Of a DNA stretch of 64,000 nt, positions 1-5,115 are shown one piece after another (the stretch's first letter is position 1; each line of letters begins with the position of its first letter). The stretch is from assembly GCA_944325145.1 (NCBI GenBank), contig CALYDL010000007.1, positions 1 through 64,000 on the forward strand, read 5' to 3'. The notes beneath the pieces were generated by a model. The model was not told the DNA's origin, ran no database searches, and saw only the letters and a list, made by a program, of their open reading frames with translations. The stretch comes from Candidatus Gastranaerophilales bacterium. GTDB taxonomy: Bacteria; Cyanobacteriota; Vampirovibrionia; Gastranaerophilales; Gastranaerophilaceae. The position numbers and the translations under genes were made by a program.

Positions 1-30
1 CTATTTTCTATGCAAATAGAACTATAATTT

Positions 31-73
31 CTCAAACTCCCCTGTCACTTTTTCTCAAACTTGGTGTCACTTT
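31..73. repeat. Imperfect 22-nt direct repeat
   Basis: Two adjacent units, each with TCTCAAAC followed 5-6 nt later by TGTCACTTT, precede the first F1 copy. Together with bases 1-30 this is non-coding sequence at the window edge and no gene is visible in it. Confidence 0.5.
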
Positions 74-76
74 ACA

Positions 77-238
77 GCAGGAGTGTTGAACTCCTGCCGT
101 AACTGTTGATAGCCGCCGTTATGAATGAAGCGCAAGCGGAATGAATGAACAAATCTTAGTAAAAATAAGAAGCGGTGCGACTTTGTCGCATAAGCTCTAT
201 TTTTACTGATTTGACAGGCGGAGAAAACCAGAGTGCAG
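77..238 (+). repeat. F1 palindromic element, copy 1
   Basis: This is the first of two tandem copies with a 162-bp period. It opens with a perfect hairpin (GCAGGAGT / ACTCCTGC, 77-97), then the core CGTAACTGTTGATAGCCGCC. A second nested hairpin has AGTAAAAATA (158-167) pairing with TATTTTTACT (198-207) around GCGAC/GTCGC (177-189). It ends near the conserved GACAGGCGGAGAAAA. An open frame runs through both copies on the minus strand but it only follows the repeat. Confidence 0.85.
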
Positions 239-400
239 GCAGGAGTGTTGAACTCCTGCCGTAACTGTTGATAGCCGCCGTTATGAATGAAGCGCAAGCG
301 GAATGAATGAACAAATCTTAGTAAAAATAAGAAGCGGTGCGACTTTGTCGCATAAGCTCTATTTTTACTGATTTGACAGGCGGAGAAAAAGCATAAAACC
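239..400 (+). repeat. F1 palindromic element, copy 2 (truncates prepilin 1)
   Basis: This is a near-identical tandem copy of 77-238, differing mainly by an 8-bp insertion (about 389-396) near its right end. It supplies the last residues and the stop codon of the minus-strand prepilin gene (318-1088), so the element has replaced the original 3' end of that gene. Confidence 0.85.
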
Positions 401-1088
401 AGAGTACAGGTTTTGGTTTTCTGTCACCATTGACATCAACAGTCATAATACAAGGAGGTTTTGTTGTGCCATCAGAATTATTATTTAAGCCATAACTGCC
501 ACAGCCGCCGCATTGATGACCGTCAACAACATCTAAATCACCGGTTTGTCCGCCATAACAAGCGTATACATTGCTCTCATACAATTTATGCCTCTGATAA
601 TTATGCCCTTTCCTTAATTCAAACCTCATGCCATCTGTTGTGTAAAACGCCGCATTTTGCCATTGCGACTGAATCATATATTCTTTTATCAACTGAGTTG
701 TACTTTTCATAACAGACATATGTCGCATTAAATATCCATATAAATTTGCATTATCATAAGGAGATTCCCCATCTATTGCCATATTCATTGTAATTGCTGA
801 ATTAAGCACGCTGACAGCTTTTCTAAGCCCTGTTTTAAATTCTTGTTGTTGAGAATTTGAAATAACACTTGGAATTGAAATTGCAGCAACAACGCCAATA
901 ATAGCTAAAGTTATTAAAACTTCTGCTAATGTAAAACCTCTTTTTCCGCCTGTGGGTATTTCGCAAGACTCACTATCGCTTACGCTGTCGTTCGTTTGCT
1001 CAATTATCCTACGGCGGCTATCAATAGTTTCGTTCAATACATTCTGTATTGAACTACACCCTGTAAAAGTTTTTTTAAATCTTTTCAT
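318..1088 (-). CDS. Prepilin-type N-terminal cleavage/methylation protein, altered at both ends
   Basis: This 256-residue protein has a type IV prepilin/pseudopilin helix, KRG|FTLAEVLITLAII at residues 49-62, which a prepilin peptidase would cleave after Gly51. Its body is close to the paralogue at 8053-8781 (shared NAITMNMAIDGESPYDNANL and CGGCGSYGL). Two things are odd. The leader is 51 residues instead of 5, because about 46 residues encoded by an F1-like element sit between MK and KRGF. After VDVNGDRKP the frame runs into another F1 copy, so the last roughly 60 residues of the paralogue are lost. A Shine-Dalgarno AAAGGA precedes the ATG. The protein may be functional only if the C-terminus is dispensable; otherwise it is a decaying copy. 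Confidence 0.85.
   Translation of the reverse strand: MKRFKKTFTGCSSIQNVLNETIDSRRRIIEQTNDSVSDSESCEIPTGGKRGFTLAEVLITLAIIGVVAAISIPSVISNSQQQEFKTGLRKAVSVLNSAITMNMAIDGESPYDNANLYGYLMRHMSVMKSTTQLIKEYMIQSQWQNAAFYTTDGMRFELRKGHNYQRHKLYESNVYACYGGQTGDLDVVDGHQCGGCGSYGLNNNSDGTTKPPCIMTVDVNGDRKPKPVLWFYAFSPPVKSVKIELMRQSRTASYFY
943..1082 (-). repeat. F1-like element inserted in frame in the prepilin 1 leader
   Basis: Read on the minus strand it has a hairpin (TTCAATAC / GTATTGAA, 1033-1053), then the F1 core ACTATTGATAGCCGCCG (about 1011-1028), and ends ACAGGCGGAAAAAG, matching the order in F1 copies 1 and 2. The hairpin stem is entirely different in sequence but still perfectly paired. Its length (about 138 nt, 46 codons) preserves the reading frame. 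Confidence 0.75.
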
Positions 1089-1170
1089 TAATACTATCCT
1101 TTCATTAATATTTATCTTTTTCTTCTATTTTTAATTTTTTATCTTTCAGCTTTTTATCTACCAACAAGCC

Positions 1171-1451
1171 TTTTAAAATCATCTGTCTTTACCGAAAGGT
1201 GAGGCGTCGGGGCGGGAGTGTCCTTTTTAGAGAATAGACAATTATTTTTTAAAATCTAATCTTCTTAATTAATAACGAAGCCCCGACTCTGAACAGCGGG
1301 TTTTGCGTAGCACGTAGGGCAAAGCCCGAAGTGCGCCAAGGTGAGTGACGTGTGGAGCGGAAAATTCCTTAAAAAAGGAATTTGGAGCGTAATCCAAGGA
1401 GCGAACCGCTAGCAAAACCCAAGAGAACTTAGGGGACAGATGATTTTAAAA
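1171..1451. repeat. F4 element with nested F2 element
   Basis: The 17-bp perfect terminal inverted repeats TTTTAAAATCATCTGTC (1171-1187) and GACAGATGATTTTAAAA (1435-1451) bound it. The homologous copy at 8907-9056 is about 130 bp shorter; the difference is the F2 element at 1295-1425. The interior contains a GC-rich stretch (CGAAAGGTGAGGCGTCGGGG) unlike the AT-rich surroundings. Confidence 0.8.
1298..1420 (+). repeat. F2 palindromic element (copy III), nested in F4
   Basis: The terminal inverted repeats are GGGTTTTGC (1298-1306) and GCAAAACCC (1412-1420). The interior shares the GTAGCACG, GGGCAAAGCCCGAA, GTGCGCCAAGGTGA and GAACCGCTAG blocks with the 7231-7975 array and has a central hairpin AAATTCC/GGAATTT. 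The uninterrupted F4 copy at 8907-9056 is the empty site; GAAC on both sides is a possible 4-bp target duplication. Confidence 0.75.
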
Positions 1452-1497
1452 GAAAAGATTAAACTTGTTCACTAAGCCAACGTTTCTTTCTTTTCCT

Positions 1498-1622
1498 GCC
1501 TATTTTCTTTCTTTGCGTGCAGGACTCCGTTGAAGAAAGTTAATAACTTTCTGAAATGGAGCAGGCGAATTGAGGCAAAGCCGAATGAGCCGTATATCAA
1601 TCTTCAAAGAAAGAAAATAGGC
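1498..1622. repeat. Inverted-repeat hairpin with nested F3 element
   Basis: GCCTATTTTCTTTCTTTG and its complement bracket an F3 element (about 1521-1603) that contains the hypervariable hairpin AGAAAGTTA/TAACTTTCT (1534-1552). At 8811-8866 the same outer inverted repeat surrounds only 16 bp, so the F3 unit is an insertion here. Confidence 0.75.
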
Positions 1623-1655
1623 AAAGAAAAATATAAGTAAACAATTTTAAAAGGC

Positions 1656-1831
1656 TTATTTGTTTTTTAATGTGCGGTTAAATTTAAACGCAACAAAATA
1701 TTCATTATGGGGCATTAAGGTGAAAAGCATTGATATTATTGAATGAAAGGAAATGAAAAATTATAAAAAAGATGAAAATTTATGTATTGAACAGTATTGA
1801 AAATAATGATAATATAAGGTTATAGAACTTG
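1656..1831 (+). other. Conserved prepilin-distal region, possible short transcript
   Basis: This stretch resembles 9060-9231: both have AATGTGCG(G/A)TTAAATT, an identical CGCAACAAAATATTCATTATG-type block, a GGTGAAAAG block, a purine-rich AAAGGAA, and then a terminator. Here AAAGGAA precedes a possible 15-codon peptide at 1754-1801. I see no larger gene. It may be a small RNA or the remains of a duplicated gene. Confidence 0.4.
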
Positions 1832-1866
1832 AATGCAACATAATGAGCATTATGGGGCATTTTTTA
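1832..1866 (+). terminator. Terminator-like hairpin
   Basis: AATGC..CATAAT pairs with ATTATG..GCATT across an internal loop and is followed by TTTTTT. The homologous position at the second prepilin locus also carries a terminator (9232-9266). Confidence 0.6.
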
Positions 1867-1957
1867 TGTAATAAAAACATTCCGTTTAATCTTATTTTTG
1901 TTTTTATATTGCTTAATAATTTTAGCAATTATTTTTTCTTTCTTTTTTATAAAATGT

Positions 1958-2659
1958 ATGGAAAAATTGCAGCTTAATTTAATTTCAAATTATCAAAATT
2001 TTGGCAAAAAAACGCTTGTCCCAAAAAACAACTTTGCAACAAAAAACGATGTTTTTGAAACATCAAACCATGTTAGTTTTACATCACGCCACATTATGGA
2101 TGTAAACTTAAAAAGAAGAACAACAAAAAACCCTATTAAGGCGCAAGTTAGAGAATTAGATTTTTCAAGCCAAGATGACAGGCTTATTTTCAGCTTAAGT
2201 TCAATTTGGGCAAAAACACTTTATATGGAATCAATTTTGAAAAATTATTTTAAGGGCGGAAACAACAGGTTTTATGTTGTGGCTGAAGGACAAAAAGATG
2301 ACATAAAAGCAAGCGATGTTAAAAGCATTTTGTTTTTTAAAGATGTTTCAAAAGGCGGCAAAAAGCAATGCAGCCTTGAATTTTTACAAGCAGCACCCGA
2401 GATTGCAGACAATGAAAAAAGTTCAATAAGAGGAAGTGGCGAACTTGCCCTTTATGCCGCCGTTCACCATGCCAAAGAAGCAGGCTGCAAGAAAGTTACA
2501 TTAACAAGCACAAATGATGATTTCTATGACAATGTGGGCTTTGAGATGGGTGTTAAAAAAGATTATAAAAAAGCGGGCTGGCCTTATTATTTAGACGAAA
2601 AAGACTATGATTGGTTTTTAGAAAAAGTTGAAAAAAAATATGGGTTTAAAAACGAATAA
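1958..2659 (+). CDS. GNAT-like acetyltransferase-fold protein
   Basis: This 233-residue protein carries RGSGELALYAAVHHA at about residues 158-172 and FYDNVGF near 190, which together resemble the acetyl-CoA loop (R/Q-x-x-G-x-A) and the FYxxxGF element of GNAT N-acetyltransferases. The first 60 residues are unlike GNAT domains and include NHVSFTSRH, reminiscent of the F-[KT]-G motif in other lineage-type proteins here. An in-frame TTG at 1898 would add a hydrophobic segment, but the ATG at 1958 gives a soluble protein and is preferred; neither has a clear ribosome-binding site. Substrate unknown. It stands alone, with convergent neighbour 2693-2956. Confidence 0.7.
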   Translation: MEKLQLNLISNYQNFGKKTLVPKNNFATKNDVFETSNHVSFTSRHIMDVNLKRRTTKNPIKAQVRELDFSSQDDRLIFSLSSIWAKTLYMESILKNYFKGGNNRFYVVAEGQKDDIKASDVKSILFFKDVSKGGKKQCSLEFLQAAPEIADNEKSSIRGSGELALYAAVHHAKEAGCKKVTLTSTNDDFYDNVGFEMGVKKDYKKAGWPYYLDEKDYDWFLEKVEKKYGFKNE

Positions 2660-2682
2660 GGCAGCTAATTAAACTGCCTTAT
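2658..2682. terminator. Bidirectional terminator-like hairpin
   Basis: AAGGCAG/CTGCCTT separated by 9 nt lies between two convergent genes. The T-tract on the plus strand is weak (ATATTT). Confidence 0.5.
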
Positions 2683-2692
2683 ATTTCAAATT

Positions 2693-2956
2693 TTAATCAC
2701 ACCACCACCAGAAGCATCTATTATGTTCGTGGTGTTTTGGCGGTTTTTTGTGGTGCTTGTGCTTTGGCGGTTTTGGTTTTTTGTGTCCGCAATCATGGGG
2801 GGCACAAGCAGGGCCGTGGTGCGGTGTGCCTGAATTTATCATAACTTGGGCGTTGTCATTTTTAAAACCAAACCAAGTAAATGTTCCATGGGCATAAGCA
2901 GTTGAAAAATAAGACGTTATGCAAAGGCAAATAAATACTCCCATGGCTTTTTTAAT
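2693..2956 (-). CDS. Secreted His/Lys/Pro-rich small protein, probable ATT start
   Basis: Read from ATT at 2956 the product is 87 residues. It begins (M)KKAMGVFICLCITSYFSTAYA, a convincing signal peptide ending at AYA|HG. The mature part has many His residues (PHHG, PHDCGHKKPKPP, KHKHHKKPPKHHEH) and ends CFWWWCD, suggesting divalent-metal binding at the surface or periplasm. GGAGG (complement of 2964-2968) lies 7 nt from the ATT. The nearest ATG (2944) would be 19 nt away and would remove the two lysines of the signal peptide n-region. I therefore prefer the rare ATT initiator. No family is recognised. Confidence 0.7.
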   Translation of the reverse strand: MKKAMGVFICLCITSYFSTAYAHGTFTWFGFKNDNAQVMINSGTPHHGPACAPHDCGHKKPKPPKHKHHKKPPKHHEHNRCFWWWCD

Positions 2957-3101
2957 TATATAACCTCCAACAAAATCTAAGCTCTCATTGTCCTTTTTAT
3001 TGTTTTTTGTGTCAAGTAAAGTTAGTTTTCTTCCTTATTATATAAAACGATTTAAAATTAATTTTGTTCATTTTTTGGTTATACAAAAAATAACAAAATT
3101 T
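2957..3101. other. Intergenic stretch without recognisable gene
   Basis: It holds the upstream region of the His-rich gene, with GGAGG on the minus strand at 2964-2968. No ORF, RNA gene or clear promoter was recognised beyond this. Confidence 0.5.
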
Positions 3102-3272
3102 TGCATACGCTTTTTATTAAAAATAGTTCACAAATAAATTTGCATGACAAAAAGCGTTCACAAATAAATTTGCATACGCTTTTTATTAAAAAATAGTTCA
3201 CAAATAAATTTGCATGACAAAAAGCGTTCACAAATAAATTTGCATACGCTTTTTATTAAAAAATAGTTCACA
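3102..3272 (+). repeat. Operator-like tandem repeat array upstream of fic
   Basis: About 2.5 units with a 69-70-bp period start with TGCATACGCT at 3102, 3171 and 3241. Each unit carries two copies of GTTCACAAATAAATTTGCAT (3126, 3156, 3196, 3226). Inside is the dyad CAAAT-aa-ATTTG. The last TTCACA also forms the -35 box of the fic promoter. The layout fits autoregulation by the DNA-binding C-terminus of the Fic protein; an iteron role is possible but no replication gene is near. Confidence 0.65.
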
Positions 3273-3294
3273 ACCGTAATTTTTATGCTATAAT
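3267..3294 (+). promoter_or_regulatory. fic promoter
   Basis: TTCACA (3267-3272), 16-bp spacer, TATAAT (3289-3294). The start point would be near 3301, placing a GGAG at 3301-3304 just ahead of the ATG at 3314, so the mRNA leader is very short. Confidence 0.65.
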
Positions 3295-3313
3295 GGCTTT
3301 GGAGTGAAGTAAA

Positions 3314-4423
3314 ATGAAGCCATTTGTACCAACAAAAATGAATGATATTAATTTAGATTTTGTTAAATTAATTCCTTTAATTTCCAAATCTAATTCTGCA
3401 TTGTCTAATTACAACGGTGCACTAAAGCACTTATTAAACCCCGGGATTTTGCTTGCACCAATGACCGCTAAAGAAGCAACTTTATCGTCCAAAATAGAAG
3501 GAACTCAAGCAACCTTAACCGAAGTTTATAAACAAAATGCAGGGGAAGATTTTTCTATAAATAAACAGCAAGATATTAACGAAATTAATAATTATTGTGA
3601 AGCCACATTTTTTGCTGTTGAAAAATTAAAAGAAAAGCCGTTCATTCATTTAAATATGATAAGAGATATTCATTCTGTTTTACTAAAAGGTGTCAGGGGT
3701 GAAAACAGAGCAAGAGGCGAATTTAGAAAAATACAAAATTGGATTGGACCAAAAGGTTCTAATATTGAAAACGCAAGCTATGTTCCGCCCGCCCCTCAAG
3801 AATTAATGAAATATCTTGATGACTGGGAAAAATTTGTTAATTCTGATTATATAGACTTGCTTATCCAGTTAGGTTTAGTTCATGCGCAATTTGAAATAAT
3901 TCACCCGTTTTTGGATGGAAACGGAAGATTAGGAAGAATTTTAATACCGTTATTTTTATTCCAAAAAGGCTACTTGCAAATGCCCGCCTTTTATTTAAGT
4001 GAATATTTTGAAAGCAATAGAGATGAATATTATCAAAAATTAAAAAATGTTTCTGTAAAAAACGATTGGCAATCTTGGATTGAATTTTTCTTAAACGCAA
4101 TCATTATTCAATCCGAAAAAAATATTGTAAAAATTAAAGAAATTATGGATTTGTATGAAAAAATGAAAACTACAATTGCTGAAACAACAAAATCTATCCA
4201 TTCACAATGCATTTTAGATGTTTTATTTATATACCCTGTTATAAATTCAACACAATTTTCAAAAAAAACGAAAATTGAAAGAAAAGCAACCGCAAATGCG
4301 CTATTACAAAAACTTGAAGATAAGGGAATTATAAAATTAATAAAAGAGGCAAGTGGCAACCGCCCGAATATTTATGCCTTTGCACATTTGTTAAATTTAA
4401 TTGAAGAAAAAGAAGTAATTTAA
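3314..4423 (+). CDS. Fic family protein (AMPylase) with intramolecular inhibitory motif
   Basis: This 369-residue protein has the Fic core motif HPFLDGNGRLGR at 197-208 (catalytic His197), expected to transfer a nucleotide monophosphate, usually AMP, to a target hydroxyl. S58-x3-E62-G63 matches the inhibitory [ST]xxxE[GN] helix; its position N-terminal to the Fic core makes this a self-inhibited class II protein. The last roughly 80 residues (NSTQFSKKTKIERKATANAL) look like a winged helix that could bind the repeat array directly upstream. There is no separate antitoxin gene, consistent with class II. The physiological target is unknown. Confidence 0.9.
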   Translation: MKPFVPTKMNDINLDFVKLIPLISKSNSALSNYNGALKHLLNPGILLAPMTAKEATLSSKIEGTQATLTEVYKQNAGEDFSINKQQDINEINNYCEATFFAVEKLKEKPFIHLNMIRDIHSVLLKGVRGENRARGEFRKIQNWIGPKGSNIENASYVPPAPQELMKYLDDWEKFVNSDYIDLLIQLGLVHAQFEIIHPFLDGNGRLGRILIPLFLFQKGYLQMPAFYLSEYFESNRDEYYQKLKNVSVKNDWQSWIEFFLNAIIIQSEKNIVKIKEIMDLYEKMKTTIAETTKSIHSQCILDVLFIYPVINSTQFSKKTKIERKATANALLQKLEDKGIIKLIKEASGNRPNIYAFAHLLNLIEEKEVI

Positions 4424-4490
4424 CATTTTATCTATCTTAACAACATTAGATTCATTAAAAATAAAAAACTACGCAAAATAATAATGATAT
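4424..4490. other. Intergenic spacer
   Basis: AT-rich sequence after fic; nothing recognised before the palindromic element that begins near 4492. Confidence 0.4.
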
Positions 4491-4491
4491 A

Positions 4492-4575
4492 CCGGAGAAG
4501 GACTTTAGCCCGAGGAGATTGATAATCTCCGAGGGAAGGAGGGGAAGAACCCACTGGGTGAGAATTCCTCCCCAA
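4492..4575. repeat. F3-type palindromic element near tRNA
   Basis: AGGACT (4499-4504) is followed by the hairpin GGAGATT-gat-AATCTCC (4514-4530), then GGGAAGGA and the palindrome ACCCAcTGGGT (4549-4559). Element A at 4870-4948 on the other side of the tRNA has, on the minus strand, the same order (AGGACT, GATTGATAATC hairpin, GGGAAGGA) with different paired flanking bases. Confidence 0.65.
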
Positions 4576-4584
4576 ATTTTTGCA

Positions 4585-4720
4585 TTAAAAAAGAGCCTTT
4601 TATTTAGGTTCTTTATTTATAAATTTGGGCCCGGAGACTCTGCCGAATAAAAATGCGAACCGTTGAGCATTTTTATGAGAGGGCAAAAGCGAAGCGATTG
4701 CATCCCGAACGGGCACTAAA
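4585..4720 (-). repeat. Duplicated tRNA 3' end and terminator with inserted palindrome
   Basis: AAATTTGGGCCCGGAG (4621-4636) repeats the tRNA 3' end found at 4754-4769, and the sequence beside it repeats the tRNA terminator in degenerate form. Between the two copies lies an element with hairpin TAAAAATGC/GCATTTTTA (about 4648-4671). Confidence 0.65.
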
Positions 4721-4747
4721 AAAAGAGGCTTTAAATTACCTCTTTTT
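4718..4747 (-). terminator. tRNA terminator
   Basis: On the minus strand AAAGAGG pairs with CCTCTTT and runs into TTTTTTT, a few bases after the tRNA 3' end. Confidence 0.75.
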
Positions 4748-4757
4748 GTTTAAAATT

Positions 4758-4821
<64 letters not shown>

Positions 4822-4829
<8 letters not shown>

Positions 4830-5115
4830 GTGACGACTTTTTGTTTTTATTTAATTTTCAATTTGCACTTGCCTTTGGCTTAGCGGTAGCGCGTGCGCTA
4901 TCCTTCCCATCCACTTCGAAAGATTATCAATCTTTCTCGTGGAGTCCTTGCCAACAGGCCCGTGACGACTTATTGTTTTATTCAATTTTCAATTTTCCAA
5001 GCGCAGCGGTATATTGATATACGGCTCACTCGGCTTCGCCTCGATTCGCCTGCTCCATTTCAAAACTTGCCATTTAGGCAACTTTTGCAACGGAGTCCTA
5101 CAGGCCCGTGACGAT
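4822..5115 (-). repeat. Triplicated tRNA 5' end alternating with two F3 elements
   Basis: ACAGGCCCGTGACGA, comprising the first 8 nt of the tRNA plus its upstream flank, occurs at 4822, 4954 and 5100. Copies 1 and 2 share about 40 bp. Between them lie F3 element A (about 4870-4948; hairpin GAAAGATT/AATCTTTC, 4918-4936) and F3 element B (about 4999-5099; hairpin AAAACTTGCC/GGCAACTTTT with one mismatch, 5062-5086). Both end GGAGTCCT. Open frames here are repeat-derived. Confidence 0.75.

What the first reader, a model, noticed from the sequence alone, without database searches (positions are those of the whole stretch)
943..1082. Palindromic element inserted in frame in a prepilin leader peptide
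Prepilin 1 has 46 extra residues between MK and KRGFTLAEV. The DNA encoding them matches the order of the F1 element found twice at 77-400: hairpin, (A)ACT(A/G)TTGATAGCCGCCG core, ACAGGCGG end. The leader is removed by prepilin peptidase, so an insertion there could be tolerated. Coding palindromic elements are known from Rickettsia (RPEs); this would be an unrelated example in a prepilin.
Basis: partly seen in the sequence, partly recalled or inferred. Interest (0 to 1): 0.75.

Follow-up and report, generated by a model that had tools for sequence, protein, structure and literature searches.

The report
Structured mobile repeat coding a pilin leader
A folded repeat of about 120 bases, scattered through a group of uncultured gut bacteria related to cyanobacteria, has landed in frame inside the start of a pilus-protein gene, in the piece that should be cut off before the protein is used; the same repeat family also sits in frame in phage genes and, unusually, right at the ends of many genes in one orientation.

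Summary
The prepilin ORF 318-1088(-) has a 51-residue leader, where most relatives have fewer than ten residues. The extra DNA is a copy of a dispersed structured repeat: 97% identical over 90 nt to an intergenic copy elsewhere in the same genome (98% in a sister species), with a clean empty site in a relative. The repeat (mean 129 nt) has two hairpins, covarying stems, a TTGATAGCCGCC core and an ACAGGCGG end. Its middle is interchangeable, so the insert and the F1 copies at 77-400 share only core, architecture and end. It occurs in 49 of 286 genomes sampled from the order, nearly all one Gastranaerophilales family. A second species' prepilin has an identical inserted leader (150 nt) although the mature parts differ (dS about 1.2), suggesting spread by gene conversion or transfer. 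Three other ORFs, two of them phage-like, carry in-frame copies read in the same frame. Unexpectedly, 39 of 77 independent copies start within -12..+25 nt of an upstream sense gene's stop codon (3% of random positions; 1 of 77 mirrored). Best reading: a selfish, non-autonomous, translatable structured repeat, analogous to but not shown related to Rickettsia palindromic elements. The mobilising enzyme is unknown; tolerance through leader cleavage is inferred.

The parts
318..1088 (-). prepilin gene with extended leader; its 3' end runs into an antisense F1 copy, so about the last 50 residues of the usual mature prepilin are missing
946..1063 (-). structured repeat (body type B) inserted in frame; encodes most of the extra leader residues
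   Evidence: R1 hit 1010-1068, 55.2 bits (this copy was one of the ten in the model); blastn 97-98% over 90 nt to intergenic copies; empty site in G004:C99
1032..1054 (-). hairpin H1: GTTCAATACA-GAA-TGTATTGAAC
   Evidence: fold, whole element z -5.2; stem covaries across copies
1011..1024 (-). core TTGATAGCCGCCGT, translated (T)IDSRR
   Evidence: same reading frame in the in-frame copies
1013..1017 (-). 5' side of basal stem P2 (CCGCC), pairs with 946-950
946..953 (-). 3' end motif ACAGGCGG; GGCGG is the 3' side of P2
1062..1068 (-). left flank TTTTACA, possible target duplication
   Evidence: family-wide flank test not significant
930..936 (-). right flank TTTTACA (part of the FTL codons), possible target duplication
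   Evidence: family-wide flank test not significant
77..227 (+). F1 copy 1 (body type A) of the same repeat family
   Evidence: identical 151-nt repeat; R1 hit 64-120
221..389 (+). F1 copy 2 (body type A)
   Evidence: identical 151-nt repeat 239-389; R1 hit 221-282
384..414 (+). truncated third copy (GCATAAAACCAGAGTACAGGTTTTGG) fused to the prepilin 3' end
   Evidence: sequence, compared with the G004:C44 copy

Best explanation
The insert is one copy of a non-autonomous, strand-specifically folded mobile repeat of Gastranaerophilales. The repeat spreads largely next to gene 3' ends in sense orientation, and it can occasionally settle inside genes because one reading frame through it can be open. 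In the prepilin it landed within the first codons, so it lengthens the cytoplasmic leader by about 46 residues and leaves the ribosome binding site, the start codon, the prepilin peptidase motif (G-FTLAE) and the mature N-terminal helix intact. Prepilin peptidase is expected to remove it, so it should be close to neutral. Shown: kinship with intergenic copies, an empty site, the open frame, conserved structure, taxonomic spread, orientation and position bias. Inferred: mobility itself, cleavage of the leader, neutrality.
For: Same-genome intergenic copy 96.7% over 90 nt, sister-species copy 97.8%. Empty site with matching upstream DNA. R1 covariance model built on ten copies: 14 pairs, 93.6% of cells paired against 71.3% in shuffles; on 74 distinct model-aligned copies 94.9% against 66.5%, 13 of 14 pairs with two-sided changes. 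R1 in all 9 genomes of the genus, 29 of 146 genomes of the family and 49 of 286 of the order. Sense strand folds better than its complement in 96 of 97 copies. Other in-frame copies: a phage head maturation protease (PHROG 976, E 2.7e-62) where relatives have no such insert, an unassigned ORF in G067 and a protein with a sub-threshold PBECR3 match in G008, all reading the core as T(I/V)D. Identical inserted leader in the prepilin of Ca. Galligastranaerophilus intestinigallinarum (G004:C179).
Against: No mobilising enzyme was found: neither Y1 transposases nor reverse transcriptases track with element presence. Target duplications are not significant overall. The window gene may be decaying, since its 3' end is replaced by repeat sequence, near a contig end where assembly errors are possible. 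In G004 the residue before the cleavage site is Ala, not Gly.
Confidence: 0.8

Rival explanations
1. The repeat is primarily a functional structured RNA of mRNA 3' ends (a stabiliser, processing site or terminator-like module), selected for in sense orientation; the copy in the prepilin leader is an accidental relocation.
For: 39 of 77 independent copies start within -12..+25 nt of a sense stop codon, against 3.2% of random positions and 1 of 77 in the mirror orientation. The fold is favoured on the sense strand, with a near-invariant G-U pair.
Against: Copies follow many unrelated genes and are undetected in most genomes of the family. FabI of one genus ends in element-coded residues where other genera have a native tail. 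Tandem arrays and swapped bodies look like mobile DNA. Some copies lie beyond terminator-like sites, and some are in frame inside ORFs.
Confidence: 0.25
2. The extended leader was not made by transposition but by recombination between prepilin paralogues, one of which carried the repeat near its start; the in-frame state is a by-product of gene conversion.
For: The inserted leader is 150/150 nt identical between two species while the downstream codons have dS about 1.25 and the upstream DNA differs. Prepilin families are huge, 11 to 124 matches per genome. In 383 family genomes only these two places match the whole leader.
Against: An empty site with matching upstream DNA and start codon exists, and short TTTTACA repeats flank the element, as after an insertion. 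Recombination explains the spread better than the origin.
Confidence: 0.2
3. The gene is a pseudogene and the open frame is a coincidence.
For: The window copy lacks the usual C-terminus.
Against: The G004 copy with the same insert is full length (289-aa frame) and the mature parts show dN/dS about 0.2, although that may predate the insert; other in-frame copies sit in long open frames.
Confidence: 0.12

Closest known systems
Rickettsia palindromic elements (RPE); similar coding palindromes are cited for Wolbachia and Methanocaldococcus jannaschii (reference list of PMC2229807)
   Same: Dispersed palindromic repeats of about 100-150 nt, both intergenic and in frame inside unrelated protein genes (review PMC2229807)
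   Different: Different phylum; two hairpins with swappable bodies rather than one long stem-loop with terminal inverted repeats; strong bias to gene 3' ends in sense orientation; no sequence comparison with RPEs was run
REP/BIME and other small mobile repeats (ERIC, YPAL/RU-2)
   Same: Small structured repeats, often intergenic and in arrays; the review's table lists open reading frames for ERIC and YPAL too (PMC2229807)
   Different: Larger and composite, one orientation relative to the upstream gene, no correlation with Y1 transposases
Integron attC sites
   Same: Folded single-strand element at the 3' end of a gene, overlapping the stop codon (attC features from memory)
   Different: R and L boxes in one hairpin were not seen by eye, and host genes here include housekeeping genes; not tested with an attC model

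Membership tests
Protein-coding palindromic elements of the RPE kind | dispersed structured repeat, also intergenic | tested here: met
Protein-coding palindromic elements of the RPE kind | in-frame insertion in several unrelated genes, in one reading frame | tested here: met
   prepilin, head protease and two other ORFs
Protein-coding palindromic elements of the RPE kind | one long stem-loop with terminal inverted repeats | tested here: not met
   two adjacent hairpins, no terminal inverted repeat seen
Rickettsia RPE families proper | sequence homology to a Rickettsia RPE | not tested
   no RPE sequence was compared; Rfam has no match to the window copies
REP/RAYT system | associated Y1 (RAYT) transposase | tested here: not met
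   5 of 29 R1-positive genomes have a Y1 hit, against 45 of 117 negative
Retro-element with reverse transcriptase in cis or trans | reverse transcriptase present where the element is abundant | tested here: not met
   no RVT_1 match in G000, G005, G006, G007; the genomes are incomplete drafts
MITE | terminal inverted repeats and fixed-length target duplication | tested here: inconclusive
   no terminal inverted repeats seen; longest shared flank not above shuffles (p 0.15), but 3-nt flank identity 22 of 67 against 12 expected (0 of 2000 shuffles)
Integron attC site | paired R and L boxes in one imperfect hairpin | not tested
   looked at by eye only

The most novel reading that the evidence does not exclude
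A new class of mobile structured element that inserts, in transcription orientation, at the ends of genes (stop codon or terminator), folds as a single strand, exchanges its body modules and can supply coding sequence, mobilised by an unknown host or phage enzyme.
Probability: 0.3. Interest if true: 0.8.

Novelty: new variant of a known kind. Interest (0 to 1): 0.6.

Why it matters
It adds an apparently undescribed family of protein-coding structured repeats in a non-photosynthetic cyanobacterial lineage, gives a natural case in which the extra peptide should be discarded by maturation, and shows a striking sense-strand, stop-codon-proximal distribution that calls for a mechanism.

Tried and rejected
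Rfam search of window 1-5000: no family for the repeat. Y1 transposase and reverse transcriptase as partners: no association. Longest-common-substring test for target duplications: not significant. Exact element patterns in IMG/VR: none. The single Anaerolinea pattern hit (L200) was not found by R1 and is taken as chance. Literature: no description of such repeats in Gastranaerophilales found; the library holds openly licensed papers only. Hammerhead ribozyme, attC and group II intron likenesses were considered by eye and dropped.

Full report
Observation. Prepilin ORF 318-1088(-) starts MKRFKKTFTGCSSIQNVLNETIDSRRRIIEQTNDSVSDSESCEIPTGGKRG-FTLAEV; the N-methylation motif is at residues 49-71. 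In 48 distinct prepilins read from the fetched loci nearly all have 2 to 9 residues before the motif; the exceptions with an upstream Met more than 14 residues away are this one, its counterpart in G004, and a few others of unrelated sequence.

Identity of the insert. The core TTGATAGCCGCC has ten exact copies in the window's genome. Against intergenic copies the insert aligns at 96.7% over 90 nt in its own genome and 97.8% over 90 nt in G001, and at 100% over 142 nt with the prepilin of G004; against the two F1 copies of the window only the 22-nt core aligns. The reason is modularity: copies share a 5' mini-hairpin GC-GNNA-GC, a stem CAGAGTG/ACTGTTG with an internal loop, a hairpin H1 whose sequence varies freely, the core, an interchangeable body and ACAGGCGG or ACAGGAGC. 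The prepilin copy lacks the 5' mini-hairpin. RNA folds of six copies are 3.1 to 5.3 sd below shuffles. In a ten-copy alignment 93.6% of stem cells pair (71.3% in shuffles); in 74 distinct model-aligned copies 94.9% (66.5%; this alignment was fitted to the model). The sense strand folds better than its complement in 96 of 97 copies, with RNA and with DNA parameters.

Distribution. R1 hits: all nine genomes of the genus, 28 in G000; 29 of 146 genomes and 11 of 41 genera of the family; 49 of 286 genomes of the order, all but two in the same family; no hit outside the order in a class sample at a stricter threshold. Named records with an exact element pattern are almost all Candidatus Gastranaerophilales; one, Ca. 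Galligastranaerophilus intestinigallinarum, has contigs of the same lengths and match positions as G004.

Place in genes. For 77 independent first-of-array copies with enough flank, 39 start within -12..+25 nt of the stop codon of an upstream sense ORF of at least 90 codons; random positions give 3.2%, and the mirror arrangement is seen once. The commonest offset is +6, where the element's own GCG-TAA ends the gene (14 copies). Host genes, named from their translations by eye and not by a family search, include enoyl-ACP reductase, PEP carboxykinase, ribosomal protein S2 and many prepilins. In one genus FabI ends in element-coded residues where other genera have a native tail. Nine of 94 copies are preceded by a T-run, several with a hairpin like a terminator; this is only modestly above the 5.3% at random positions.

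In-frame copies. Full read-through with a long ORF on both sides: the two prepilins, a head maturation protease in G008:C193, an ORF of unknown family with two tandem copies in G067:C60, and a protein with a sub-threshold PBECR3 match in G008:C23. The protease insert falls in a linker that is absent or different in relatives. All read the core in the same frame. One of the other two frames has a stop in the core, so the shared frame is partly forced.

History of the leader. G004:C99 has upstream DNA like that of the window gene, the same start, and no insert. G004:C179 has the inserted leader, identical for 150 nt, but different upstream DNA and a mature region with dN 0.27 and dS 1.25 relative to the window gene. 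In 383 family genomes only these two places match the whole leader. Short-tract recombination or transfer of the leader is the simplest account of the spread.

Limits. Mobility, cleavage and neutrality are inferred. Target duplications are suggestive only: TTTTACA on both sides here, array spacers repeating the left flank in some arrays, 3-nt flank identity above shuffles (one of several lengths and shifts tried), but no overall signal. No partner enzyme was identified. All genomes are drafts and many copies lie at contig ends.

Noticed in passing
G000:C53 (L118) about 440-600: Another prepilin of the same genome has a long leader of unrelated sequence, MTKKAFTLKKEMNCHLKLVLESQIKTISHSVCHSELVSGSNKKQFKR before AFTLAEV; it looks like a different insertion or a fusion of two prepilin starts.
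   Followed up: partly
genus genomes G000-G008: Prepilin-like matches number 11 to 124 per genome, an unusually large paralogue family, with the repeat often at their 3' ends.
   Followed up: partly
window 318-414: The prepilin 3' end runs into an antisense, truncated repeat copy near the contig start, replacing the usual C-terminus; assembly error not excluded.
   Followed up: no
L161, L177, L185, L102 and others: A related second type of the repeat with stem GTGTGTG and core ACCGTTCCAAACCGCC or ACCGTACGACACCGCC lies in the same arrays.
   Followed up: no
G004:C179 (L131): The G004 counterpart has Ala instead of Gly just before the predicted cleavage site; several other prepilins of the genus also have AFTLAE.
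   Followed up: partly
window 2693-2944: Small histidine- and proline-rich ORF ending in HKHHKKPPKHHEHNRCFWWWCD, with an imperfect 27-nt tandem repeat at 2721-2774.
   Followed up: no
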